From: Maribacter litopenaei
Lineage (GTDB): Bacteria > Bacteroidota > Bacteroidia > Flavobacteriales > Flavobacteriaceae
Direction: 5' to 3'
DNA length: 64,000 nucleotides
Assembly (NCBI RefSeq): GCF_025244665.1
Contig: NZ_CP104205.1
Coordinates: 930,001 to 994,000, forward strand
The position numbers were made by a program, and so were the translations under genes. Numbering within the stretch: position 1 is the first letter of the stretch; each line of letters starts with the position of its first letter. This document shows positions 1,915 to 15,514 of the stretch, piece by piece. The notes below the pieces were generated by a model. That model searched no databases and was not told the DNA's origin. It was given only the letters and a program-made list of their open reading frames with translations.

Positions 1915-2197
1915 GCCCACAACGACCTGCTAAACGCAGTTCAGGTATGATAACGAAGATACAATAAAATGGATAAAAATGCCATGATATTGGACTGTTG
2001 GCATCATGGCATTGTTTGTCAATTAGATGGCGCAGCTATCGTGGATTGCCATTTTATTGAATTGGGAGTTAGAGTGCCTGATCCAAATTGCATTTAGCTC
2101 CGTGTTATGGCACGTTGAGCACTTGAGTGCGTCAGCTGGAGCTGTAGATAATAGAAAGGGTTTTAGCAATTTGGTTTAGCAGGTCGTTATGGTCACA
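1915..2197 (-). repeat. attC-like cassette site a8
   Basis: Perfect 15-bp inverted repeats (AACGACCTGCTAAAC at 1921-1935 and its complement at 2174-2188) bracket a long, about 240-base centre without an ORF. The right boundary GTTATGGTCACA (2186-2197) is the exact complement of the boundary at 2255-2266, which closes cassette c8. The left boundary reads GCCCACAAC (1915-1923). No complementary partner for it was found between 1 and 1900, so the next cassette is open-ended. Confidence 0.7.
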
Positions 2198-2254
2198 CTT
2201 GCTTGTGGGGCGGGAGTGCGCAGCACGTAGCCACGCAAGTCAGCTTCAGCTGAT

Positions 2255-2330
2255 TGTGACCATAACGGTTTGTGCAAATGCAGTAACCGACGTTTGGAGG
2301 ATGTTGGCATTTTGCACATTGTTGGCATCA
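2255..2330 (-). repeat. attC-like cassette site a7
   Basis: A short (76-bp) site. After the left AAC the arm reads TGTGCAAATGC. Before the right GTT the partner arm is GCATTTTGCACA, one base longer, so a single base would be extrahelical. Left boundary TGTGACCATAAC pairs with a8 and right boundary GTTGGCATCA pairs with a6 (3391-3400). The stretch between a8 and a7 (2198-2254) carries no gene. Confidence 0.75.
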
Positions 2331-2342
2331 GTTATCTTCTTT

Positions 2343-3365
2343 TTAATCTCCTTTTAGAAAAGCCAATACTTCTTCATTTTCTTCATTCATCAAAATCAAA
2401 TTCAGTCCTTCTAATTTATAAAAGGCTACTTGATTAATTGCTTTGATAAAAGCCTCAGCAGTATCCATTTTATGGCACATTTTCTTGGTGGAGGCAAGAT
2501 TTCCAAAAACAATTTGGTTTTCGGTCACTTTCTTTATCCCTCCTGAGTATTGATTGCATCCATCATATCCGAACACCTTCAGGTCGGTTAGGTTAATTTC
2601 CATTCTCGGTATCGGTGACATACGGTTAATGGGGTTTCCATTTATTCTTGTAGTTACCCAAATATCATGAAGTCTTTGATTTGGATTATTTGGCTTTTCT
2701 TTTATGAATTCAAGAATTTTCTTTTCCGTTTTATCAAAAAATATAACCGTCTCGCCTTGTATTTGATAAGTCGATATGGAGTTAAGTGTTTTTTGAAACT
2801 CAGGTTCAACATTTTTGTTGATGCACGCTTTTTTAGTACCTGCCACTGTTCCTAAAGATATTTCGGAAGCAGTCAGAGTCTCTATTTGACCTGTAAAATT
2901 ATTGCAACCTCCATTTGCTGCCAATACTTTTTTAGAGAGTTCAATGGTGATAGTTGGTATAGCTACCATTCTGTTAAGTGGTGCATTGTTCAGTTTTACT
3001 AAAGTCCAATCACCGTTCAGTTCTGAGCGAATATCTTTTTGCTTATCCAATACTTTTATAAGTTCGTATTTAATAGAAGAGCCGTCAGCAGGTACTTCGT
3101 TTTTATCTAATCGGGTTTCCTTGACCTCAATCTTTTGAAGATAACCTTCTTCAAATTCAAAGCCTTTTATAGAAGCATAGAAGTTTTCCCAATTAGGGTT
3201 GTTTATATCTTCTCCCCTATAAATGTTTAAACATTGCATTTTCCCTGCTCCCGCAGAACATTCGGTTTTTATACCGCTTACCCGTAAAACTTTATTCATT
3301 TTGTTTGAGCATGATTGAATTAGTACCAGTAAAAATAAAATTAAAAGTAATTTTGTCAGATTCAT
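2343..3365 (-). CDS. Lipoprotein with DUF4377 and two META domains
   Basis: A 340-residue secreted lipoprotein. Its N-terminus MNLTKLLLILFLLVLIQSC is a lipobox signal with the acceptor Cys at about residue 19. Residues of roughly 25-110 resemble DUF4377 (ECSAGAGKMQCLNIY, then a VLDKQKD end). Two META domains follow, at about 115-220 and 230-335, each with the W-x-L/T-x-x-x-N-P/x-x-R start and a GGCNNFTG or DGCNQYSGG signature and a late KKAC/KKMC cysteine. META proteins (HslJ-like) are associated with outer-membrane stress or protease inhibition, but the exact role is unknown. It is an intact, single-gene cassette (c7) in array orientation, with sites a6 and a7 within 30 bases on either side. 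Confidence 0.85.
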   Translation of the reverse strand: MNLTKLLLILFLLVLIQSCSNKMNKVLRVSGIKTECSAGAGKMQCLNIYRGEDINNPNWENFYASIKGFEFEEGYLQKIEVKETRLDKNEVPADGSSIKYELIKVLDKQKDIRSELNGDWTLVKLNNAPLNRMVAIPTITIELSKKVLAANGGCNNFTGQIETLTASEISLGTVAGTKKACINKNVEPEFQKTLNSISTYQIQGETVIFFDKTEKKILEFIKEKPNNPNQRLHDIWVTTRINGNPINRMSPIPRMEINLTDLKVFGYDGCNQYSGGIKKVTENQIVFGNLASTKKMCHKMDTAEAFIKAINQVAFYKLEGLNLILMNEENEEVLAFLKGD

Positions 3366-3390
3366 TATTATTGATTTTACTTTTTTTAAT

Positions 3391-3528
3391 TGATGCCAAC
3401 GGTTTTGTGTATTAGTAGTAGCGGATATTAACCCACTAAACTTTCAGATAGCACTGACCTTTGATGTATACTTTTATGTTTCACATTAGCACTACACCCG
3501 CTATTGCTTATACACAATGTTACCTGCA
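3391..3528 (-). repeat. attC-like cassette site a6
   Basis: Arms TTGTGTATTAGTAGTAGCGG (left) and CCGCTATTGCTTATACACAA (right) pair with few mismatches. Left boundary TGATGCCAAC belongs to cassette c7 and right boundary GTTACCTGCA to cassette c6. The central part is recognisably homologous to that of site a4 (shared TTAACCCAC, CACTGACCTT and CCGCTATTGCTTATACAC blocks). Between core and stem there are three more bases on the left than on the right. Confidence 0.8.
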
Positions 3529-3545
3529 TATGGCTGTATGGTTCT

Positions 3546-5435
3546 TCAGTGGTCATGAACAGTAACAATACGCTTAATATGATTCAAAGCTTCAAAAGCA
3601 AAAGAATCTGAGTCGAAATAACCATTGTATCCTATTGAACCTTTAATGTTTTTGTTTCCCACTGGCTGTTTTTTACCCTCTACCACAGTGCCCCAAACCT
3701 TTATGTCTTTTATCTTTAATGGATCACAGGTTATTGGGTTGTCGGACAGAATTGTAAAGTTGGCCAGTTTTCCTGACTCAATAGAACCAATCTGATCTTC
3801 CAATTTTAGTGAATATGCAGCCTCAATTGTAACTGCTTTTAAGGCTCCTTCACGACTTACTTTTTAGTCCGGTGAAGCAACTCTCCCACTGGTCGTGATT
3901 CGGTTTACCCCACACCACATTAAGTATAATGGATCAGCTGGTGCCATAGGCATATCGCTGTGATATGAAAAGGAAACACCTGCTTTTTCCACATCGCCCA
4001 TGCGTACCATATTGTCTGCTCTCTCGGTCCTAATCCAAACTGGCTGTAGTTGTCCGCCAGTGCGGCGGTATAATAAGGGTTGCCACTAACAATACATCCC
4101 AGTTTGGCCAGCCTGTCCACCTGATCTTTCTGACTAACTGCAAAGTGAACTATCACTGTCCGGTGATCAAATCTTGGATTTCTTCGCAGATTTTCTTCCA
4201 ACGTATTGAGCACCCTGTCTAACCCTGCATCACCATTTACATGAATGTGTAATTGATATCCTGCATCCCGTGAAAATCCGAAAGGCTCTTTCAAATACTT
4301 CCTTATCAGTCATCCATTCACCATGGTGATTATCGAGGTAGGGTTCTCTCACTTGCATAAGCTGAGAATATATTGCGCCATCAGAAAAAAGCTTAATCTG
4401 ATTTTTAGAAAGCGATGTTTTGCCATAGTACCAGTTTTCTAATTTACCAGCTTCTTCCAGTACCTTTGCGTCATCCTTATACTTGTCGCAAAGAGTTTTA
4501 CCGTCTGCAATAAAACTCCACCTGAAAGGCATATCATTACCCGACATCACTGAGTTAACAGCGTCCTGCAGTTGTTTTACAAGTATTCCACCTGGTTCAT
4601 TGCCAAAGGTAATACCTTTCGAATGCATATAATCTCTCATTATTTTCAGACCGGTTTCCAGTTTTTCAGGTGTTGCCAATACGGTTGCAATTTTAGGTGC
4701 CACAGCGAACATACCTTGCTCCCGTAAACGTCCTTCTGCGAAGTTTGATTGTTTTTGAGGCGTTTCTCCCCATGTTTTTATAAAGGCTTGATTGATTCCA
4801 TATTTGTTGAGTGCCTTTGTATTCAATACAATCTCATGGCAACTGCGCAACCAAGCCAGCACCGGCCTGGTTGTACTGATTTTATCCAGATCGGCTTTGG
4901 TAAGTGATCCATAAAAACTTGGATGATACCCCCAGGTAACCAATGGTTCATCGGAATCTTTCATAAGTTTCTCGGCAACGGACAGCCGTGTCATAAAATC
5001 GTTTTTATCTTTGACCCCTGGTTTTATACCGCCGGGTAAGGATCAATCTTCAATTGATAACACCTCAGAGGCCATTGTAAGAGCGGCAAGTACCGGGTGG
5101 TCATGCTGTGCTATAAAACCAGGAACGATTACTTTGTCATTAAAGGTTTTGTCAATCCACGTTGGTTGATCGCCTATTAATTTTTGCAATTCTTCCAATG
5201 TACCAACGGCAAGAATCTTTCCATTGACCACGGCAACTGCTTCCGCTTTTGGTCGTGCAAGATTCATGGTGATTATTTCTTTAGCGGTATATATGGTTAT
5301 TTGTGGTTTAGATTGAATACTGCCACCAATATCTTGTAAAGTCTGTCCAGTTGCAGAAAAGTTTATACTAATAATGCTTGCGACTGCTAGTACAATGACT
5401 TTTATAAATCTGTTATTTTTTCTTTGAGTGACCAT
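3546..5435 (-). pseudogene. YtcJ-like amidohydrolase cassette gene, multiply frameshifted
   Basis: Read through its frame changes this is a complete secreted amidohydrolase of about 600 residues. It has a signal peptide (VIVLAVASIISINFSATGQ), a sandwich strand pair AVAVVNGKILAVG, the metal motif VPGFIAQHDHP (HxH), a central TIM-barrel with KLFSDGAIYSQ and HIHVNGDAGLDR, and a C-terminal GKLANFTILSDNP. Pieces lie at 5043-5435, 4230-4994, 3920-4294 and 3546-3803, with frame changes near 5035, 4270, 3930 and 3850, the last next to a stop at about 3862. It forms cassette c6 alone. The enzyme class (hydrolysis of amide or N-acyl bonds) follows from the family, and the substrate is unknown. It is broken as written. 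Sequencing indels may account for part of this, as elsewhere in the window. Confidence 0.75.
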
Positions 5436-5472
5436 ATTGTTGCTTATTTAAGTTTATTTCTATTTTTGTCAT

Positions 5473-5613
5473 TGCAGGTAACGGTCGACGCTACAGCGTC
5501 GGTGTGGTTAATTATACCAAAAGTAAGCAAAAAAACGATAGCCTGGATAAAATCCGCAGGATTTTATCCAAAAGTTGACTGCCCGAACACTGCGTTGTAG
5601 CGATTGTTACCAC
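5473..5613 (-). repeat. attC-like cassette site a5
   Basis: Left core TGCAGGTAAC (5473-5482) is followed by CGCTACAGCGTCGGTGT. The right arm ACACTGCGTTGTAGCG precedes GTTACCAC (5606-5613). Six bases separate core and stem on the left, three on the right. A second hairpin (GGATAAAATCC / GGATTTTATCC) sits in the centre. The boundaries match cassettes c6 (left) and c5 (right). Confidence 0.8.
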
Positions 5614-5873
5614 GTGCTAACATCATTCCGCAAGTATTTAAAAGTTAATTTGAAGCGAAAATATTGAATTTTATAGACAGCCAAAACGCCCAAAACTTTC
5701 CCTATTGCTACGAACTGTGTTCTTTCTGCCAAGTTTACTACAGAATTTTAATAGAAGGAAATTTTGCTTTAATTTTTTTTTGTTTACAAAAAAGCGATTA
5801 CTTGATTTTACTCAGCCCGAAACCAAATAGGGAAGTAGTTGTTTTTAACTTTTGGAAAGCAAAATTTTAGTAT
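5614..5873 (-). other. Cassette c5, no recognisable gene
   Basis: About 260 AT-rich bases between sites a5 and a4. No minus-strand ORF of useful length is present. A 68-codon plus-strand frame exists, but it opposes the array, lacks a ribosome-binding site and has low-complexity composition. The cassette may carry a regulatory or RNA element, or nothing. Confidence 0.5.
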
Positions 5874-6007
5874 GTGGTAACGGTCTCGTGTATGAGCAGT
5901 AGCGGATTTAACCCACAAAACTGTCAAATTACACTGACCTTAAATTTACACTTTTTAGTTTCAAAATAGCACAGAACCCGCTATTGCTTATACACATTGT
6001 TAGCCAC
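5874..6007 (-). repeat. attC-like cassette site a4
   Basis: Left core GTGGTAAC (5874-5881) with arm GTGTATGAGCAGTAGCGG. Right arm CCGCTATTGCTTATACAC before GTTAGCCAC (5999-6007). Core-to-stem distance is six bases left and three right. The two cores differ from each other, but each matches the far end of its own cassette (c5 and c4). Confidence 0.8.
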
Positions 6008-6109
6008 TGGCTTTTTTCTTTCTGCGTTGGAAAAGCCATACTCTTTTGCAATTTTTGGCTTGTGTGTCGGCTGAAGCGAATTGCAAATGTGTATGGCTTT
6101 AGCGTTGGT

Positions 6110-8336
6110 TTATTCACTCGGAATTCTAAACCGAACTCCTACATACAATTCTCTCCCGCGAGTTGGTCCCCAAACTGAACTTGTGTCAAAAAACTGACCG
6201 AATGGGTCTTGCCAACCTATAATCGGTCGTTCTTGCCTAAAGTCAAAAATGTTTTCGCAACCTGCATACAATTCAAACTTTTTCAGGTTGTATGTAAATT
6301 GAGCATTTACAAGCACATAATTTTCTGAAAAGTCAGGTCGTTGAAATTCCGGTGGATTGCTCTGCGTATTTGGCAATCGTTGTTGACCGTACCAATGGAT
6401 ATTCATATCTACGTGATACTTTTTGGATAATGGTTTGTAGCCTAAAGTCGTTACTACTTTATGTCTTGGATTGAATGGCAATAGCACTTTTTGTCCGTCA
6501 ATTTCCCGATAAACATCTAAAAAGCTGTAGCCTGTTTTAAATTCAAACTGTCGCCAAAAATTTAGATAGACTTCTGCCTGAAATGTATTGCTTACGCTCT
6601 TTCCTGAGAAGTTTTCAATGATTGCCTTTGTTGGGTCTGTATCGTAATCGGGAAATATTTGGTTCTGAAAATCAGTTCGGTAATAGTCCGCACTAAAAAA
6701 ACCTGTAACATTCTCGCCATTGAATTTCTGTGTAAGATTAATACCTGTATTCAATGCTTTTTCAGGTTCAAGTTGTTCTGAAAAAACAATGTCTCGTGAA
6801 CTTACCAATAAACCAATATTTTCACTAAACAAATTGACCGTTCGCCATCCTGTTCCAATGTTTGCACGTACAATGGTGTTTGGTGCAATATCATATTTTA
6901 AAAGTGTTCTTGGCGTTACTATTGTGCCAAATTGATTGTGATTATCAACTCGTATTCCTGCAATCCAAGTCAGTTTATCGTTGAGTAACTTTAAGGTATT
7001 TTCTGCAAATACACCTGCAATGTTTTCGTTTCGCAAATAATTGCCTGCATACGTTCTTTGCAAGTTGTTATTTGTAAAGGAAATATCTTCATCCAAATTC
7101 AAATGACGAAAGCTAAACCCTGTCTTTAGCGAGTTGTTGCCGTAATTGAATTCATATTGAAGGTTTCCATAAAAGTTGGTCTCGGTTGGCATTATACTTT
7201 ACAGTTCCGAAGTAGGATTTTTGGTCTTGATAAAAACTTGAAGCGAATAAAACAAAATTGTGTTGGTCGTTTAAGCGATAGCCTGTTTTCGTCCAAATTT
7301 CGGGCTGATTGATATTTACCGTTTGTCCATAAACTTCTGTACTTCCTTTATCATTGTTTTCGTTAAAACTGGTTTGTCCGCCAATCCGCTGTTCGTTTAC
7401 ATATCGCAATCCTATTCGGCTGTTCCAACCCCAATCTGCGTCATTTCCATATTTTAGTTTATTGGAAACCATATATCGAGTAAGTTTTGGTAAGTCGAGA
7501 AAATTGTCGTTATCCCTGTCAAACTCATTCGCTGGTTGCACCGTATGAAGAGCTGTCAAGTTGCTCCATTTTCCTTTTTTTATTGCATAATTGGCGTTCA
7601 AATGCTTTTCTGAAAAGCTGTTGATATAGGCATTTAGCAAAAGTTTGTCGGTTTTGTCAGGTTCTTTGGTCTCTACATTTATTTGTCCGCTCATACTCTC
7701 AAAACCTTGTAAAACGCTGTTTGCCCCTTTTGAAATGTAAATGTTATCTACTAAAGTTCCTGGAATACTGCTAATCCCATATGTATAGGTCAAGCCCTGT
7801 ATCATTGGAAAACCATCAATCAAAACTTGATTGTACACGCCTGAAAGTCCAAGAATACGAAGCTCTTTTGAATTTGTTATGACGTTTGTGGTTTGTGGTT
7901 GAACAGTTGTTTGTGTTTCAAAGCATCCTGCCAAATCACAACAAGCGGCTTTTCCTAATTCGGTTTGCGTAATCTGTTCTGTCTTTATTGGATTGAGATT
8001 TGAAATAATTACTCCGTCTCGTTGTCCTTTTACAACCACTTCATCAAGCTCTTGAGACTGCTCTAACTTAAACTCTACAAATGTTTGGTTCGTTATTTCT
8101 ATGGTGTCTGCAATATGTCCGACATAACGAGCTATCAGAAGTTTAGGCGAAATATCCTTTGTAGTAAGTTCAAACTCGCCTTTAATGCCTGTTGTTGTGC
8201 CAATGGTTGTGTTAGCCCAAAAGACACTCGCTCCAACAAGAGGTTCGTTTTTTTCGTTGGTTACCTTTCCTAAAATACTTTGTGCAAACAAGGCATACGG
8301 AAACAGCAAACCAACAATGAATATATATTTTTTCAT
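6110..8336 (-). CDS. TonB-dependent receptor of a metal-linked cassette (frameshifted)
   Basis: An outer-membrane receptor of about 740 residues. It has a signal peptide (MKKYIFIVGLLFPYALFAQS), a carboxypeptidase-like regulatory domain (residues about 20-105, GKVTNEKNEPLVGASVFW), then a plug domain (LGLSGVYNQVLIDGFPMIQG, SMSGQINVET) and a long barrel ending in VGVRFRIPSE. The better start is the ATG at 8336, because the signal peptide begins there; a longer frame upstream is unlikely. The frame changes once near 7170-7190. The two genes upstream (HMA protein and Cys-rich protein) are the usual partners of TonB receptors thought to handle copper or similar metals, so metal-chelate uptake or sensing is inferred. 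It is the last gene of the 3.4-kb cassette c4. Confidence 0.85.
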
Positions 8337-8400
8337 TGTTTCTTTTTTAAATGAGTTGAAAAGCAAAGCGTAATTCAATTACGCTTTGCCTTAAATCTGT

Positions 8401-8748
8401 TTACTGCTTTATTTTGTATGGTCTTTCGTCAGGATTTTCGCAACTTCCTGTATTTTGAATTGCTGAATGTATTTCCTTTTCTGTAATCAGAGCTGGATTA
8501 TACACTATTTCAAATGTGGTTGTTGGTCCTGTTTTTCCTGCTTTGCAAGTGCTTACACCTTTTAGTTTCTCGACATTTGCCGAAATCATTTTTAGGTCTG
8601 TCGAGCAAGTAATGCCTTTAACTTTGGTTGTTAAAGTTTTTGTGGTGTCCGCAATTTGCACTTTTTCTTTTGTCGATTGTGCAAAAGTTACTGTTGTTGA
8701 GGCTAACATAAATGTGATAGCCATAACGAAAATATTTGAAAATTTCAT
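8401..8748 (-). CDS. Secreted heavy-metal-associated (HMA) domain protein
   Basis: A 115-residue protein with a signal peptide (MKFSNIFVMAITFMLASTTVTFAQ) and one HMA-like domain: VKGITCSTDLKMI, then a GVSTCKAG strand, GPTTTFEIVYNPALIT and a C-terminal GSCENPDERPYK. The classic metal site CxxC is CSTD here, so only one cysteine of the loop remains, and two further cysteines lie near the end. This form is common in Bacteroidota next to TonB receptors. It probably binds or delivers a metal such as copper in the periplasm, but specificity is not shown. It lies 64 bases upstream of the receptor and probably shares its transcript. Confidence 0.8.
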   Translation of the reverse strand: MKFSNIFVMAITFMLASTTVTFAQSTKEKVQIADTTKTLTTKVKGITCSTDLKMISANVEKLKGVSTCKAGKTGPTTTFEIVYNPALITEKEIHSAIQNTGSCENPDERPYKIKQ

Positions 8749-8820
8749 TTTTCTGAATTTAAATTGTTTAACTAAAAGTTGAACCGAAGTTTCGGTTCTT
8801 TTCTGTGGTCGAAAGTGTTG

Positions 8821-9165
8821 TTAAACAAATTGTGGCGGTTGCCAAAAGTCAGAAATGAATTGAGAAGCTATAAATGATTGGTATCCGAAGAACTCTTCGG
8901 TTGAAAAATCAGTCTGTAACGCTGGAAAAAAAGGTGTACTAACACAAATCAAAAGGCAAGAGCCACAAATTTGAAATGGATTACACATTCCGTTATCTTT
9001 TTGTTCGTTCTGATTTTCTGAATTATGATTGTCAGAAATTGGATTACACTTACTACTGCTACAGCAAGTCTGTTGGGTTTCTGACGAAAACGGAATAGCA
9101 TCAATCGCTGGTTTTACCGAGAGAAAGATTACCGTGAAGGCTAATATGTAAGTTAAAATTTTCAT
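8821..9165 (-). CDS. Small secreted Cys-rich protein (DUF6660-like)
   Basis: A 114-residue protein with a signal peptide (MKILTYILAFTVIFLSVKPAIDA) and clustered cysteines: TCCSSSKC, then an Asn/Glu-rich spacer, then MCNPFQICGSCLLICVSTPFF. The pattern matches the short Cys-rich proteins (DUF6660-like) that precede HMA proteins and TonB receptors in Bacteroidota. Metal binding is an inference from the cysteines and neighbours. It is the first gene of cassette c4. A TAnnTTTG element directly upstream suggests the cassette brings its own promoter. Confidence 0.7.
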   Translation of the reverse strand: MKILTYILAFTVIFLSVKPAIDAIPFSSETQQTCCSSSKCNPISDNHNSENQNEQKDNGMCNPFQICGSCLLICVSTPFFPALQTDFSTEEFFGYQSFIASQFISDFWQPPQFV

Positions 9166-9175
9166 CAGATTGTTG

Positions 9176-9183
9176 CAAAGCTA
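9176..9183 (-). promoter_or_regulatory. Bacteroidota -7 element (TAGCTTTG) of cassette c4
   Basis: On the minus strand the sequence TAGCTTTG fits the TAnnTTTG consensus of the primary sigma factor in Bacteroidota. It ends 11 bases before the ATG at 9165, so the leader would be very short. No clear -33 TTTG was found at the usual distance. Confidence 0.4.
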
Positions 9184-9304
9184 CAAAATTTCAATGAGTT
9201 TCCTTTCGAGCGTTGGCGAAAAACAGCTCTTTTGGTTTTTTCTGCGTTGGCTTTCGTGTCGGCAAAAACCAAATGTGCTGTTTGTGCGGCTGGCTTTTTA
9301 GCTT

Positions 9305-9438
9305 GTGGCTAACGGTTCGTGTATGATTAGTGCGGGTTGAAACCCGTAGGATTTCGGCCAGTACCATCGCTTTTAAATATACGTAGATTTTCCGTTAGGA
9401 AAATCGGCCAGCATTAATTATATATATTGTTAGCGTAA
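9305..9438 (-). repeat. attC-like cassette site a3
   Basis: Left core GTGGCTAAC (9305-9313) with arm GTGTATGATTAGTGC. Right arm GCATTAATTATATATA before GTTAGCGTAA (9429-9438). The centre holds two further hairpins (GCGGGTT / AACCCG and GATTTTCC / GGAAAATC). The boundaries match c4 (left) and c3 (right). Confidence 0.8.
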
Positions 9439-9756
9439 TTGTGGCGTTGCCCTTTTCATGGGCAGAAAGCGGACATTTTCTTTTGTCCCAGTGCCCTTTT
9501 TGCCCTTTTCATCCACCACGGAGTGGGAAGTCTGAGTTCTGCTTGCGTACCCCTTGCGAACAGATTGGAAAGCCTTTTACACGTCCGAGTCGGATCCTTT
9601 CTGCGTACTCCTTGCGTACCGGGGCAAAAAAGGGAAGGCCCCGAACCGATAATTATTTTTTTAAGAACACCGAAACCAAAACAGGGGAGTACGGATCGGA
9701 GAACAAGAGACCCTTAAATTCCAAAAATAACCCCGACCAATAAATTTGAACGGCAT
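9439..9756. repeat. Duplicated cassette body, copy 2 (cassette c3)
   Basis: Nearly the same sequence as 10255-10572. Bases 9615-9665 and 10431-10481 are identical. Differences cluster in the first 70 bases. No minus-strand gene is visible. A plus-strand frame of 100 codons (9441-9743) is partly shared with the other copy, but there it ends early at a stop and its changes fall on all codon positions, so coding is doubtful. Runs of C and G make long imperfect hairpins (CTTGCGTACC and GGGGCAAAAA regions), which could suit a structured RNA. Confidence 0.75.
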
Positions 9757-9895
9757 TTACGCTAACGGTTGGGCTATGATTTCGTTGCGGACATTTCCAA
9801 CGGAAATTGTCCGGGAGAAATCGGGCCCTGTTAATGGTTTATAGTTTTAAATTTAGCGAAAATGCAGCAATGAATTATAGCCGGTGTTAGAGAAC
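9757..9895 (-). repeat. attC-like cassette site a2
   Basis: Left core TTACGCTAAC (9757-9766) with arm GGCTATGATTTCGTTGC. Right arm GCAATGAATTATAGCC before GTTAGAGAAC (9886-9895). Five bases between core and stem on the left, three on the right. The boundaries match c3 (left) and c2 (right). Confidence 0.8.
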
Positions 9896-9906
9896 GGTTT
9901 TATTAT

Positions 9907-10113
9907 TTATTTTTTACTGCCTGAACTTGATAAAAAGGGAGCGAACATTTTTCGATGGCCTCGCTTTACCTCCAAATACAAAATGGGTTTTCTTTTTTTA
10001 TTTTTTCGTCCGAGTGGGAGGTCGGACTGGGTATTAATGGCGACCGAGTAAAAGGTCGGTTCAGGTTTTGTTAACGGTTCGTCCGTGCCATGTTTGGTCG
10101 GGCTTTGCCCCAC
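9907..10113 (-). CDS. Possible small basic protein in cassette c2
   Basis: A 68-codon minus-strand frame that almost fills cassette c2 and points in array direction. Its product is basic and Ser/Pro-rich (PLGRKNKKRKPILYLEVKRG, SSSGSKK at the end), has no recognisable domain, signal or membrane segment, and resembles nothing known to me. Its position, starting 2 bases from site a1 and ending 12 bases from site a2, is what a one-gene cassette would look like. The composition gives little support for coding. Confidence 0.35.
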   Translation of the reverse strand: MGQSPTKHGTDEPLTKPEPTFYSVAINTQSDLPLGRKNKKRKPILYLEVKRGHRKMFAPFLSSSGSKK

Positions 10114-10114
10114 T

Positions 10115-10254
10115 GTTCTCTAACGCCCGAGCTATGATTAGTTGCGGCGTTCACGGCCCAAAATACGATAAATAGACGCTTGGTTTGAAAATCCGTCTAG
10201 GATTTTCATACAGTCCTCAGGCCGAGCAATTAATTATAGGTTTTGTTAGCGTAA
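10115..10254 (-). repeat. attC-like cassette site a1
   Basis: The first full site next to the recombinase. Left core GTTCTCTAAC (10115-10124) with arm CTATGATTAGTTGC. Right arm GCAATTAATTATAG before GTTAGCGTAA (10245-10254). The right boundary is the exact complement of the a0 boundary at 10569-10578, and the left one of a2 at 9886-9895. Confidence 0.8.
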
Positions 10255-10572
10255 CCGTGGCGTTCCCCTTTTCATGGGCAGGTAAGGGACACTGCCATTT
10301 GTTCCCGTACCCTTTTTGCCCTTTTAATCCACCACGGAGTGGGAAGTCTGCGTTCTGCTTGCGTACCCCTTGCGAACAGATTGGAAAGCTTTTTACAAGT
10401 CCGAGTCGGATCCTTTCTGCGCAGCCCTTGCGTACCGGGGCAAAAAAGGGAAGGCCCCGAACCGATAATTATTTTTTTAAGAGCACCGAAACCAAAACAG
10501 GGGAGTACTGACCGGAGAAAAAGAGACCCTTAAATTCCAAAAAGACCCCCGACCAATAATAACGGCATTTAC
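10255..10572. repeat. Duplicated cassette body, copy 1 (cassette c1)
   Basis: Closest cassette to the recombinase and a near-copy of 9439-9756, offset by 816 bases in the shared block. The two copies also share the same boundary word (GTTAGCGTAA), while their attC-like sites (a1 and a3) have diverged much more. No convincing gene on either strand. Confidence 0.75.
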
Positions 10573-10606
10573 GCTAACGGTTGTATATAGTAACAAGTTA
10601 CTATAT
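10573..10606 (-). repeat. attI-like half-site a0 beside the recombinase gene
   Basis: The core GCTAAC (10573-10578) is followed by a perfect palindrome: ATATAGTAAC at 10585-10594 and GTTACTATAT at 10597-10606 with AA between. Unlike a1 to a8 there is no 100-base paired body. It lies 17 bases from the recombinase stop codon. A single core plus a compact recombinase-like palindrome at the array head is what an attI site would look like; this is inferred from position and form. Confidence 0.6.
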
Positions 10607-10622
10607 TTCTATTTTATCCGGA

Positions 10623-11750
10623 CTAATCTAATGGATTTTTAATGTTCTTAAAGGTATTCGTCGCCACATGGGTGTATATTTCGGTAGTCTTGCTGGATCC
10701 ATGGCCTAAAAGTACTTGGATCTGCCTAAGATCTGTACCTGATTCCAAAAGATGGGTCGCAAAACTGTGCCGTAATATATGTGGGGTGACCGTATTTCTT
10801 ATACCAGCCTTTTCCGCTGCCTTTTTGACGATGTTCAATACACTTTCTGCGGTATATTTCGATGCCTTCCTTCCCTCGAACAAATATTCCTGAGGTTTCC
10901 ATTCTTTGTAATAGAGACGAAGATCATCAAGTGTTGATTTTGATAATAAAGTATACCTGTCCTTATTACCTTTGGAACCTTCGACCCTGACCAGCATTCG
11001 CTTGCTATCTATATCGTTTATCTTTAAATTCAAAAGCTCACTTCGTCTAAGGCCTGAACCATACAAAAGTTTTACAATACAACGGTGCTTAAGATTATTG
11101 GTGTTCTCGATAATCGCAATGATTTCCTCCTTGGAAATGACCTTCGGTAGCTTTGATTCTTTTACGGGCCTTTCGATCTCATAAAAGCGGTTGGGCATAC
11201 CTAAAACTACCTCGTAATAGAATTTAATGGAGTTAATCGCCTGGTTCAGATAAGAATTGGATACCTTCTTCCGTATAAGACACTGTAAAAACGCCCTGAT
11301 ATCACTCTCGTCAATCGTATGTAGCTCTTTTTCCTTATAATAGTTGATGAACATTTCAAAGAAGGATACGTAGGTCTTTACCGTACTAAACGAATATCGT
11401 TTTAACTCCAACTTCAATAGATATTCCTCGGGACAATATCTATAATTGGGAATAGGTTTTCTTTTCCTGAACCAGGACACATCAACAATTTCATTTTTGG
11501 TGTTTACCGGTCTATTGGTAAAAAATCGATTGTAGTTTATCCGGACCACACCTTTGAACGTATTGAAGACGATGCCAAGATTGGCCTTGGTATTGGGTAT
11601 GTAGGCCATATTGTATTTTTCGCTCCATTTAGGATTTGGTAGACCCTTGATCAGGTTCTGTATAAGCCTATCCGGGGAAAACTTGATGCCTATCATTTTA
11701 CGATCATCGATCATTAAATGGTAAAGCGTTATTGATTTCATTGCGTTCAT
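10623..11750 (-). CDS. Tyrosine recombinase of the integron-like array
   Basis: A 375-residue site-specific recombinase. Residues about 1-95 form an extra N-terminal domain (GIKFSPDRLIQNLIKGLPNPKWSEKYNMAY...) seen in a group of Bacteroidota recombinases. Residues about 103-190 are the core-binding SAM-like domain, and 200-375 the catalytic domain. The catalytic set is complete: R235 (GSGLRRSE), K263 (KGNKDR), H324 and R327 (PHILRHSF), H350 (LLGH) and nucleophile Y359 (EIYTH). K263 to H324 is only 61 residues, Xer-like, so the long IntI-specific insertion is absent, yet the end (IKNPLD) recalls IntI (VRSPLD). It is intact, co-oriented with the cassettes, and its 3' end faces them. ATG at 11741 is an alternative start. 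Cutting and joining the neighbouring sites is inferred. Confidence 0.85.
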   Translation of the reverse strand: MNAMKSITLYHLMIDDRKMIGIKFSPDRLIQNLIKGLPNPKWSEKYNMAYIPNTKANLGIVFNTFKGVVRINYNRFFTNRPVNTKNEIVDVSWFRKRKPIPNYRYCPEEYLLKLELKRYSFSTVKTYVSFFEMFINYYKEKELHTIDESDIRAFLQCLIRKKVSNSYLNQAINSIKFYYEVVLGMPNRFYEIERPVKESKLPKVISKEEIIAIIENTNNLKHRCIVKLLYGSGLRRSELLNLKINDIDSKRMLVRVEGSKGNKDRYTLLSKSTLDDLRLYYKEWKPQEYLFEGRKASKYTAESVLNIVKKAAEKAGIRNTVTPHILRHSFATHLLESGTDLRQIQVLLGHGSSKTTEIYTHVATNTFKNIKNPLD

Positions 11751-12327: not shown

Positions 12328-12556
12328 TTTAAGAGGTTATTCTGCAATTATAGCGTATTATAATTTTCTTATAACGAATGGTGCAATCAGTTGATTTTCA
12401 ACACCTAATTTTATAGAAAGTCCTGCATCGGAAATCATTTTCTACAAACCCTCAAGATTTCTGATAACCAATTATTTACGGGTCTTGATATGCACCAATT
12501 ACCCTAGTGCACGGGTTTCGCAGTTCCAAAAAAGGACATTTGGGAAAGGAATCGAC

Positions 12557-12895
12557 ATGCGGAAGAAGAGTATTATCATTAATGAAAGGAGTCATAGGGA
12601 ACTCAAAAAGTTGGCCCAGGAGCACAATAGGAATATTGGAAAATTTACTGAGGAAATGATCCTCTATTTCCAAAAAACGGGAACCGACCCCCAAGCCATA
12701 AAAGGGAAGAACGCCAGCGAGATGATCAAGGTCATCGATAGGCGTATCGTTTCTTTCTTTAAGACCCAGGAATCGGAAATCCTATATCCCATTCAGACGC
12801 AATTGAACAAAAACGGGGAACGTACCGACTTTCTCTTCAAAAAGCTTATTGAGGAACTGAACAAGATTTTTGAACGGATAAAATTTGGGGGATGA
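12557..12895 (+). CDS. BfmA/BtgA-like mobilisation accessory protein
   Basis: From ATG 12557 (preceded by AAAGGA at a good distance; a longer frame from 12485 exists but has no such signal) a 112-residue protein is read. It has a basic ribbon-helix-helix-like N-terminus (MRKKSIIINERSHRELKKLAQEHN), NIGKFTEEMILYFQKTGTDP, then two long amphipathic helices (IDRRIVSFFKTQESEILYPIQ, FLFKKLIEELNKIFERIKF). This matches the BfmA/BtgA mobilisation proteins of Bacteroides mobilisable elements, which bind near oriT and assist the relaxase. Its stop overlaps the start of the next gene (ATGA), so the two are translationally coupled. Confidence 0.75.
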   Translation: MRKKSIIINERSHRELKKLAQEHNRNIGKFTEEMILYFQKTGTDPQAIKGKNASEMIKVIDRRIVSFFKTQESEILYPIQTQLNKNGERTDFLFKKLIEELNKIFERIKFGG

Positions 12896-13803
12896 TGCCC
12901 GTAAGTATTGTTCATACCACTTCCCAAGACAATAAGGGCAGTTGCTCCAAATACGGACATTACCTGAATAAGGAAAATAAGGTGCTGAAGAAGGAGGGTC
13001 TAGGACATCGACAACAGTTTTTCTTCGACCAGGAACAAAACACGCTAACAACCATTAGGGCAATCGATTTGGTAGATAGGAATAGCAGAAATAAGGGGCT
13101 GGCAAAAAAGCAGGATCGATATTTTACGGTGACCTTGAATTTTAGCAAAAAGGAACTGGACCACCTGACATCGACCTTGGCCAAAAGACCCATAACGGAC
13201 ATAGGCGAATTGAACGATAGGGAGTTACAGGACTACAATGAGGTTATCCGATTGTTCACCCGACAGGCCATGCGTAATTATGCGGACAATTTTAATAAGG
13301 GAATTACAGAGAAGCAACTGGTTTGGTTTGCCAAGATCGAGCACAGAAGATATTATAAGGGAACCGATAGGGAGGTCATGGTCGGCAAGGCCAAAAGCGG
13401 GGAACGTAAAGAAGGGCTGCAGTCCCATGTACATATTACCGTTTCGAGAATGCACAAAGATTATCGGATAAACCTGAGCCCCTTGGCCAATGCCCGTAGT
13501 AGCACGAATCGGGTCTTGAACGGAAAAAAGGTAAATGGCGGATTTGACCGTTCACAATGGAAACAACGGAACGAGTACACCTTTGACGAGATGTTCAAAT
13601 ATAAGAGAGGCCTGGAGGAGAAATTTGAGACGCTTCGGGTTTTAAAGCATGGTACTCTAGAAGAGAAAGAGGTGTTGAAATTGGCCATACAACAGGAAAA
13701 GAATCAGACCATAGAAAATCCCTCTATTTCCAAAAAAATAAAAAGGCGCAATGGTATTGAAAAAGAGAGGATAAAAAGTAGGAACAACCAAATGACAAGA
13801 TAA
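12892..13803 (+). CDS. DUF5712 (MobB-like) relaxase candidate
   Basis: A 303-residue intact protein. It starts SIVHTTSQDNKGSCSKYGHYLNKENK, has KKQDRYFTVTLNFSKKEL, a WFAKIEHRRYYKGTDREV segment, EGLQSHVHITVSRMHKD with an HVH pair, LSPLANARS and a basic C-terminal tail. These blocks are those of DUF5712 proteins in mobilisable Bacteroidota elements, often labelled MobB and placed between BfmA and a coupling protein. The HVH pair followed by IxVSR is reminiscent of a relaxase metal site, but relaxase activity is inferred, not proven. The next gene is five bases downstream. Confidence 0.75.
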   Translation: MMPVSIVHTTSQDNKGSCSKYGHYLNKENKVLKKEGLGHRQQFFFDQEQNTLTTIRAIDLVDRNSRNKGLAKKQDRYFTVTLNFSKKELDHLTSTLAKRPITDIGELNDRELQDYNEVIRLFTRQAMRNYADNFNKGITEKQLVWFAKIEHRRYYKGTDREVMVGKAKSGERKEGLQSHVHITVSRMHKDYRINLSPLANARSSTNRVLNGKKVNGGFDRSQWKQRNEYTFDEMFKYKRGLEEKFETLRVLKHGTLEEKEVLKLAIQQEKNQTIENPSISKKIKRRNGIEKERIKSRNNQMTR

Positions 13804-13807
13804 GCAC

Positions 13808-15514
13808 ATGGACAAGGCGGTATTTATGGAATTGCTGATGGGAGGGACGCACCCCATCATACATCTGTTAATGCGCTTTGTCGCTTTTGTAGTCTACTTT
13901 CTGTTTTTAAAGCGTGTCAGCAGGATGCACTTTTTTCTCGGCACTCTTTGTTTCTTTTCCCCTAACCATATTTTTTCCATTGGCACTTTTTATCCCATGT
14001 TTCGTCTTGGGTTGAATCGCATATCGGATATACGCTTTGGTACGTTCCCTGTTCAAGAAAAGCCCGGTAGTTATCGATGAGGTTGATGACAGTCCGGAGG
14101 GCTTCCGATTTACGGTTGATGACAAGAACGTTTTGTTGGAGAATCCATATCGGGGTATTTATATCCAAGGAGGAGCGGGGAGTGGAAAGACACTTTCGCT
14201 GATACACCCCATAGTAATACAGGCTGTTACCAAAAACTATTCGGGAATATGTTATGATTTTAAATCCCCTGAATTAACCCGATTGCTATTTGCTAATTTG
14301 AAAAAAGGGGAGGGGATAGTCCACCCGTATTTTATCGATTTCAAGGAAGCCCGGAGAAGCGCCCGGACAAATCCCTTACAACCCGAACTGTTACCTAAAA
14401 TTGCCTACGCCCACGAATATGCCCGCACCTTGATGTACAACCTATCCCCCAAGAACATCAAGAACGAGGACTATTGGATGATGGAGGCCAAAAGTGTACT
14501 GACCGGGCTTATCTCGGTATCTAAAAATGGAGCATCCCCACTATTGTAGCCTTCCCCATGTGATAAGTTTGATATTGCACACCGATATGTCCCAATTGTT
14601 GGAACGGATATCGGCAAATCCGGAAGCTGCAGGTTTTACGGCCAGTTTAAAACAGGCGTTACATAAAGAGGCATCCAACCAAGTGGCAGGAGTGGTAAGT
14701 ACGTTACGCACCAATTTAGCGAAGCTGAATACGCCCGATATTTTCTCGGATACTCTCCGGAAACGACCTCGATTTAAACATCAACGACCCCCTAAACCCA
14801 AAATTCCTTTGTATCGGCAATGAAAGCACCTTGGCTGAAACCTATGCCCCTGTAATTTCCCTGCTTATTTCCGTGGCTCTAAAACAGATGAATCAACCAG
14901 GTAAACATAAATCGGTGGTATTGGTGGACGAACTGCCTACGCTTTATATCAACAAACTGGAACAGACCCCTGCCACGGCCCGAAGCAATAAGGTGGCGAC
15001 GGTTTTGGCCTGTCAGGATTTTAGTCAAATGGTTGACCGATATGGAAGGGACAAGGCTCAGGTCCTATTGTCCAACATGGGAAACCAATTTTTTGGTAGA
15101 ACGGTAAATAAGGATTCCGCACAGATGATAACCCAAATGTTCGGCAAGGCGGACAAAACGTTTAAGACAATCAGTAATGGGGATAATTATTATCAATCCT
15201 CCATTTTTGGAAAGCACACCAATTCTTTGAACAAAAGTACCAACGAAACCGTTCAAGAACGGGACCGGGTAAAAACTACCGATATAATGAATCTTCGACC
15301 AGGGGAATTCTATGGTCTAATAGCGGAAGGCAACGAGAGGGAAATCTTAAAATCTGAATTTGTAATCAATAAGGAATTAGGAGATAGTGGTTTTGAATTT
15401 CCAATTAGGGCAACAGATATGGATATTCAGGACAATTACCAAAAGATTATTTGGCAGGCTAAAAGTATTCTCGAACCTATGGCTAAACAAGATGAAGATT
15501 TGATTCGGTTTTAG
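13808..15514 (+). CDS. TraG/VirD4-type coupling protein, MobC-like (frameshifted)
   Basis: An about 570-residue ATPase in pieces. The N-terminus (from 13808) carries two membrane segments (IIHLLMRFVAFVVYFLFLK and a Phe-rich second one). From 14037 comes NPYRGIYIQGGAGSGKTLSLIHP with the Walker A site, then DYWMMEAKSVLTGLIS. From 14831 on there is SVVLVDELPTLYI (Walker B), NKVATVLACQDFSQM, and GEFYGLIAEG. Frame changes fall near 13940-14040, 14545 and 14770-14825. The type IV coupling protein would link the relaxosome to a transfer channel. No transfer-channel genes are seen here, so the element would be mobilisable rather than self-transmissible. Confidence 0.8.

What the first reader, a model, noticed from the sequence alone, without database searches (positions are those of the whole stretch)
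1915..11750. Integron-like cassette array with a non-IntI tyrosine recombinase in a Flavobacteriaceae genome
A tyrosine recombinase gene is followed, in its own direction, by an attI-like half-site and eight attC-like palindromic sites that delimit eight cassettes of 343 to 3432 bases. Recognisable cargo genes share one orientation. The recombinase lacks the long insertion between the second and third catalytic motifs that marks IntI, and has its own N-terminal domain, so standard integron searches could miss it. Classical integrons are described mainly with IntI; an array built by a Xer-like enzyme would be a separate system.
Basis: partly seen in the sequence, partly recalled or inferred. 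Interest (0 to 1): 0.95.

Follow-up and report, generated by a model that had tools for sequence, protein, structure and literature searches.

The report
Bacteroidota integrons without IntI integrase
This marine flavobacterium carries a long row of gene cassettes, separated by hairpin-forming DNA sites, beside a recombinase that belongs to a different clade from the classical integron integrase and lacks that enzyme's supposedly essential helix, so bacteria of this phylum likely capture and shuffle genes by a second, unrecognised kind of integron.

Summary
A 375-residue tyrosine recombinase (10623-11750, -) is followed by attI (dyad 10585-10606, core GTT 10578-10576) and eight cassettes of 343-3432 bp with complementary ends (5-9 nt beyond the cores). 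The genome continues the array to 24 linked sites over about 33 kb. Relatives head such arrays in 50 of 53 testable loci; shuffles and two other Xer-type loci gave none. Of 277 linked cassettes, 222 have their main ORF on the integrase strand, 3 on the other. Identical cassettes recur between unrelated neighbours. These integrases branch outside IntI and Xer and lack the IntI insertion. Their sites lack the left-arm bulges of canonical attC and carry two fixed positions that mispair on the coding strand but form G.T on the other; the bottom strand usually folds better. Inferred mechanism: bottom-strand hairpin cassettes recombine into attI without I2 or classical extrahelical bases. Recombination was not observed. 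Eight literature searches found no description of this system.

The parts
10623..11750 (-). Cassette integrase, 375 aa tyrosine recombinase; motif residues R235, K263, H324, R327, H350 and Tyr359 invariant in the 44 aligned sequences (catalytic assignment by motif, recalled)
11511..11750 (-). N-terminal domain (residues 1-80), predicted strand-strand-helix-strand-strand-helix-strand fold; weak structural likeness to XPB N-terminal and SMARCAL1 HARP domains
10585..10606 (-). attI dyad ATATAGTAACTTGTTACTATAT
10576..10578 (-). attI crossover core GTT (within CCGTTAGCG), 6 nt 3' of the dyad
10122..10248 (-). attC-like site S8
9764..9889 (-). attC-like site S7
9311..9432 (-). attC-like site S6 (bottom strand folds into the full hairpin, top strand does not)
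5879..6002 (-). attC-like site S5 (uninterrupted stem on the bottom strand; broken by mismatches on the top strand)
5480..5609 (-). attC-like site S4
3398..3522 (-). attC-like site S3
2264..2324 (-). attC-like site S2 (short, 61 nt)
1921..2189 (-). attC-like site S1; left core at 2188-2186 by the boundary rule (9 nt), the hairpin score alone prefers 2107
10124..10577 (-). cassette 1, 454 bp, no clear gene; contains a 300-nt stretch 91% like one in cassette 3
9766..10123 (-). cassette 2, 358 bp
9313..9765 (-). cassette 3, 453 bp; 93-94% like three cassettes of Maribacter flavus
5881..9312 (-). cassette 4, 3432 bp: TonB-dependent receptor (broken frame), a 115-aa protein weakly metal-binding-like (below cut-offs), a 114-aa protein without match
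5482..5880 (-). cassette 5, 399 bp
3400..5481 (-). cassette 6, 2082 bp: amidohydrolase (frame broken into pieces)
2266..3399 (-). cassette 7, 1134 bp: protein with META and DUF4377 domains
1923..2265 (-). cassette 8, 343 bp, mostly site S1

Best explanation
This is an integron-type cassette platform whose tyrosine recombinase belongs to a clade separate from IntI and Xer and lacks the IntI I2 insertion, and which likely captures circular gene cassettes by recombining a folded bottom-strand hairpin (attC-like site) with a double-stranded attI placed directly behind its own gene. Shown: the integrase clade, the missing insertion, the attI dyad and core, the arrays, the boundary rule, one-way cargo, repeated intact cassettes and the strand asymmetry of the sites. 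Inferred: that only the bottom strand is recombined; that crossover is at the GTT core; that two fixed G.T positions in the bottom-strand stem take the strand-marking role that extrahelical bases play for IntI; that the many cassettes with short leaders are read from a promoter near attI; that the enzyme moves cassettes today. Untested guess: the N-terminal domain, where present, helps to recognise the hairpin.
Against: No recombination was observed; all evidence is from sequence. Three of 53 loci showed no linked pair (L061, L085, L102; relaxing the rule to 5 nt gave only a weak pair in L061), and L074, L081, L098, L057, L007, L103 and L063 only one. The canonical control sites also lean to bottom-strand wobbles, though less (53 against 27; 23 sites against 3; at least one A/G in 32 of 44), so wobble bias as such is not unique. 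For S5 the whole-strand energies are nearly equal (-18.4 top, -18.2 bottom); for S3 neither strand folds clearly better than its shuffles. The N-terminal domain is absent in four array-bearing relatives (L063, L064, L104, L105). attI dyads beat 95 of 100 shuffles in 17 of 20 B and 12 of 23 A loci but only 2 of 13 C loci. Sites were picked by a hairpin score, so the mere presence of stems is not independent evidence; boundary rule, ORF direction and strand asymmetry are. One Xer sequence (L124) also showed a long motif spacing (110), so spacing alone does not define IntI.
Confidence: 0.85

Rival explanations
1. It is an ordinary integron whose IntI has merely lost or shortened its insertion, working on ordinary attC sites.
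For: Same architecture and boundary rule; canonical IntI exists elsewhere in the phylum (46 of 148 genomes); a classification paper noted that the insertion is not fully conserved in its integron-like subgroup (PMC8138268, passages).
Against: A-D integrases branch outside IntI (IntI against the rest, support 100; A-D together, 95). All 35 A-D sequences measured lack the insertion (spacing 58-63). Their sites differ: few left-arm bulges, two fixed wobble positions.
Confidence: 0.1
2. The sites are double-stranded inverted-repeat sites recombined by a classical two-strand, Xer/dif-like reaction; hairpins are incidental.
Against: Double-stranded use would not favour G.T pairs on one strand only (542 against 90) nor fixed mispairs at +10 and +15. 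The sites are mostly 120-200 nt long with a variable middle.
Confidence: 0.1
3. The sites are a repeat family spread by something else (for example a MITE), and the integrase is a bystander.
For: Similar site arms recur within a genome (7 matches of one 17-nt arm near its three arrays).
Against: Arrays lie beside the integrase, with exact end complementarity, in 50 of 53 loci; none around two other Xer-type genes; whole cassettes are the moving unit.
Confidence: 0.03

Closest known systems
Integron with IntI integrase (mobile and chromosomal; V. cholerae IntI structure 2a3v)
   Same: Integrase + attI + array of cassettes, one-way ORFs, short leaders, GTT core with complementary cassette ends, hairpin sites mostly of 120-200 nt, signs of a preferred bottom strand.
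   Different: Integrase clade separate from IntI; no I2 insertion; few left-arm bulges of the extrahelical type; two fixed G.T positions; array 3' of and co-directional with the integrase in the A-C loci with linked sites; palindromic attI; optional N-terminal domain.
Archaeal/bacterial XerA, XerC, XerD and pdif modules
   Different: Separate group from the xer genes of the same genome; long hairpin sites and cassette arrays, absent around the two other Xer-type loci of this genome.
IntCTnDOT-type integrases of Bacteroidota ICEs
   Same: Same phylum, extra N-terminal domain before the core-binding domain (from passages of PMC8138268).
   Different: Here the enzyme sits at the head of a cassette array; whether its N-terminal domain is related to arm-binding domains was not settled.

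Membership tests
Integron (IntI-based definition) | Integrase with the IntI-specific additional domain / I2 helix | tested here: not met
   KDR-to-HxxRH spacing 58 here, 58-63 in all 35 A-D sequences measured, 100 in the seven IntI whose motif was matched; TIGR02249 below cut-off, split match; IntI4 alignment broken there
Integron (IntI-based definition) | Integrase falls in the IntI clade | tested here: not met
   12 IntI of the phylum against the rest, support 100; IntI of other phyla not included
Integron (IntI-based definition) | attI next to the integrase | tested here: met
Integron (IntI-based definition) | Array of cassettes with GTT/AAC cores and complementary ends, ORFs in one direction | tested here: met
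Integron (IntI-based definition) | attC hairpin with extrahelical bases as landmarks | tested here: not met
   Hairpin present; left-arm bulges typical of canonical sites (84 in 44) are rare here (75 in 184, with 98 in the right arm)
Integron (IntI-based definition) | Recombination of the single bottom strand | not testable with these tools
   Sequence asymmetry points to it
Integron (IntI-based definition) | Promoter Pc driving cassettes | not tested
   Only short leaders measured
XerC/XerD-dif or pdif module | Housekeeping Xer enzyme acting on short dif sites | tested here: not met
   Different group from the xer genes; sites mostly 120-130 or 184-196 nt
XPB N-terminal / HARP domain family | Shared fold of the N-terminal domain | tested here: inconclusive

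The most novel reading that the evidence does not exclude
Integrons exist twice: the phylum Bacteroidota runs a second lineage of cassette-capturing hairpin recombinases that never had the I2 helix, marking the strand by two G.T wobbles rather than by extrahelical bases. I2 would then not be the innovation that made integrons possible, and surveys that select integrases by IntI features have missed a phylum-wide gene-capture system that may also have released tet(X).
Probability: 0.6. Interest if true: 0.96.

Novelty: new variant of a known kind. Interest (0 to 1): 0.92.

Why it matters
The I2 insertion is described as necessary for cassette capture and as the step by which integrases turned to single-stranded hairpins (PMC7790495, passages). 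Archaeal integrons were described as having it as a defining feature (PMC9668308, passages). IntegronFinder 2.0 names one complete integron in Bacteroidetes proper, in Salinibacter ruber (PMC9024848, passages); a review does list Bacteroidota among integron-bearing phyla (PMC8618304, passages). Yet homologues of this integrase occur in 205 of 397 genomes of the window's family and 89 of 395 genomes of its phylum sampled at E <= 1e-60, and 50 of the 53 testable loci read head cassette arrays. This makes the question of what I2 and extrahelical bases are for directly testable by comparing two natural solutions, adds a large, largely unrecognised pool of mobile genes, and offers a concrete idea for the unexplained 'xerD' beside tet(X).

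Tried and rejected
A first hairpin scorer without wobble missed S2, S4, S6, S7 and S8 and was replaced. The link counts printed were off by one and are not used. RNA covariance modelling was not attempted because the loop is too variable; a custom anchored-arm score was used, and the published attC covariance models were not run. The Maribacter flavus locus shares about 430 nt upstream, the attI with the first 400 nt behind it and one cassette type with the window, and nothing else within 10 kb at E <= 1e-5, so it gave no strain-level gain/loss test. A Pfam tally of 76 cassette ORFs (of 204 found) gave mostly single hits; the commonest family was Gp49 (DUF891), 3 of 76. Foldseek with the N-terminal domain gave no match at E <= 0.001; the XPB/HARP likeness is only suggestive. 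The idea that this domain replaces I2 was weakened by relatives without it. Literature: eight searches on integrons listed no paper whose title or abstract start describes this system; one more dealt with xerD and tigecycline, one with the HARP/XPB domain and found nothing useful. No preprints are in that library. Only passages of papers were read, no whole text.
Full report
What is there. The integrase gene (10623-11750, -) encodes 375 residues with a tyrosine-recombinase core from residue 108 on. NCBIfam places it in a mixed model, NF040815, named 'site-specific tyrosine recombinase/integron integrase' (241 bits, cut-off 220); the integron-integrase model TIGR02249 stays below cut-off and matches in two separate stretches. 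Directly behind the stop codon lies a 22-nt dyad (10585-10606), then six bases and a GTT core. From that core eight cassettes follow, bounded by GTT on one side and AAC on the other; in every cassette the two ends are complementary for 5-9 nt beyond the cores, as expected if the unit was once a circle closed at the GTT.

Beyond the window. On contiguous genome sequence, 24 linked sites stretch to position 907,689, about 33 kb from the integrase, and a pair of sites of the window (S7, S6) recurs at 920,031 and 919,574. S1 is not among the 24, because the hairpin score picks its other left core. Two of the 24 are near-identical low-scoring stretches (9.5) and may be false, and a third scores 10.3. 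The same genome holds two more relatives, 59% and 46% identical. The first has sites on its 3' side (four good ones printed, one linked pair), the second an array of linked sites on its 5' side, reading away from the gene.

Relatives. Homologues at E <= 1e-60 occur in 205 of 397 genomes of the window's family (Flavobacteriaceae, judged by the named relatives) and 89 of 395 genomes of its phylum. Of 53 loci with at least 4 kb on the array side, 50 have at least one pair of hairpin sites obeying a 6-nt boundary rule: class A (identity 69% or more) 14 of 15, B (54-65%) 17 of 18, C (39-45%) 11 of 11, D (45-56%) 8 of 9, L063 and L064 on the 5' side. The three misses are L061, L085 and L102; seven loci have only one pair. 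L069 was dropped as a copy of L044, L068 holds only the last 21 residues of its integrase, and loci whose contig ends near the integrase were not counted. Shuffled sequence gave a mean of 0.00 linked pairs in every locus, and the other flanks, where long enough to score, gave none apart from L063 and L064. Two loci around other Xer-type genes gave none. With the looser score of 9-10, chance links do occur.

Cassettes move as units. The 277 linked cassettes, called at score 9 and including three counted twice through L069, have a median length of 792 bp. In 222 the longest ORF of 80 aa or more is on the integrase strand, in 3 on the other, 52 have none. The start codon of ORFs of 100 aa or more lies a median of 33 nt from the cassette edge. 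In L072 five pairs of alike cassettes (four at 100%) lie at separate places of one array; L078 and L042 have pairs at 98-99%; cassettes 89-90% alike are shared between L047 and L086 and between L097 and L105. The flanks of these pairs are 0.22-0.47 identical. In the L073 pair (100%) the downstream flank is also identical, so it may be a larger duplication.

The sites. Their lengths cluster at 120-130 and 184-196 nt. After the core and a short unpaired stretch comes a stem in which two positions, 10 and 15 nt from the left core in most sites (249 and 312 of 372), carry A on the left and C on the right. On the coding strand these are mismatches; on the bottom strand they become G.T pairs. In 188 linked sites of fresh A/B loci there are 542 bottom-favouring differences against 90 top-favouring ones. 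DNA folding gives the bottom strand the lower energy in 161 of 184, 76 of 81 and 35 of 39 sites of A/B, C and D, against 18 of 44 canonical sites of the same phylum. Those canonical sites, a set that may hold a few false ones, show the left-arm bulges known as extrahelical bases (84 in 44 sites); the new ones show few (75 left, 98 right in 184). The canonical set also has a weaker lean to bottom-strand wobbles (53 against 27; 23 sites against 3) but at least two A/G positions in only 3 of 44. For S5 the fold shows an unbroken stem on the bottom strand and one broken by mismatches on the top strand, although the total energies are alike; S3 does not fold clearly better than its shuffles on either strand.

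attI. Over 20 attI sequences of class A and B loci, the ten-pair dyad keeps 89.5% of cells paired while the sequence changes: 50 cells with both sides changed against 14.9 in shuffles (0 of 500), and slid versions reach at most 47.5%. The rows were taken from those with a six-base distance to GTT, one per dyad; repeats of a dyad, a near-copy (L043), two rows whose dyad is shifted (L058, L079) and all rows with distance five or seven were left out. The test found clear dyads in 17 of 20 B, 12 of 23 A and 2 of 13 C loci.

What it means. By layout and by the boundary rule this works like an integron. By the published definition it is not one: the IntI domain and the extrahelical landmarks were tested and not met. 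The most economical reading is a sister or parallel lineage of integrons whose recombinase recognises the folded bottom strand in another way. The statement in print that I2 acquisition opened single-strand recombination would then need revision, or at least a second route. That surveys could miss it follows from their method: one selected sequences by the additional domain (PMC2426708, passages), another uses an IntI-specific profile (PMC9024848, passages).

Noticed in passing
L146:2967-3822 (Acinetobacter baylyi plasmid NZ_CP104735.1): The recombinase gene ('xerD' in the papers) beside tet(X3) is an N-terminally truncated relative of this integrase (56% over residues 146-375), and between it and tet(X3) lies an attI-like dyad (3777-3796) followed by a GTT core, as if tet(X3) were the first cassette of such an integron. 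No attC was found after tet(X3) in this one record. Papers note the xerD-tet(X) adjacency as unexplained (PMC7473080, PMC7530245, passages).
   Followed up: partly
L147 (Chryseobacterium sp. SNU WT5 plasmid, NZ_CP041688.1): A near full-length relative (41%) on a plasmid heads an array with six linked sites (one of them low-scoring), one site sequence repeated three times, with an IS110 and a group II intron gene inside.
   Followed up: partly
window 12485-15514: Behind the 5' end of the integrase lie a DUF5712 protein (a mobilisation-type protein as I recall) and a TraG/TraD-like coupling protein broken into several frames, so the integron may sit beside a conjugative or mobilisable element.
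   Followed up: no
window 3546-8378: The amidohydrolase and TonB-receptor genes in cassettes 6 and 4 are split into several frames; with genome completeness of 81.7% in one contig this may be sequencing error rather than decay.
   Followed up: no
L064:3634-9742: In a class D array the same 126-nt site recurs four times with the same right end, alternating with other sites, suggesting one tiny cassette inserted again and again.
   Followed up: no
sites of 184-196 nt in many loci: The long site class differs from the short one by about 65 nt and several of the examples printed share loop sequence across loci, so the loop may have a function of its own.
   Followed up: no
L127-L136: Canonical IntI above the TIGR02249 cut-off occurs in 46 of 148 genomes of the phylum as this database draws it, 45 of them outside the window's class; some genomes (for example G457, G512) carry both kinds of integrase.
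   Followed up: partly
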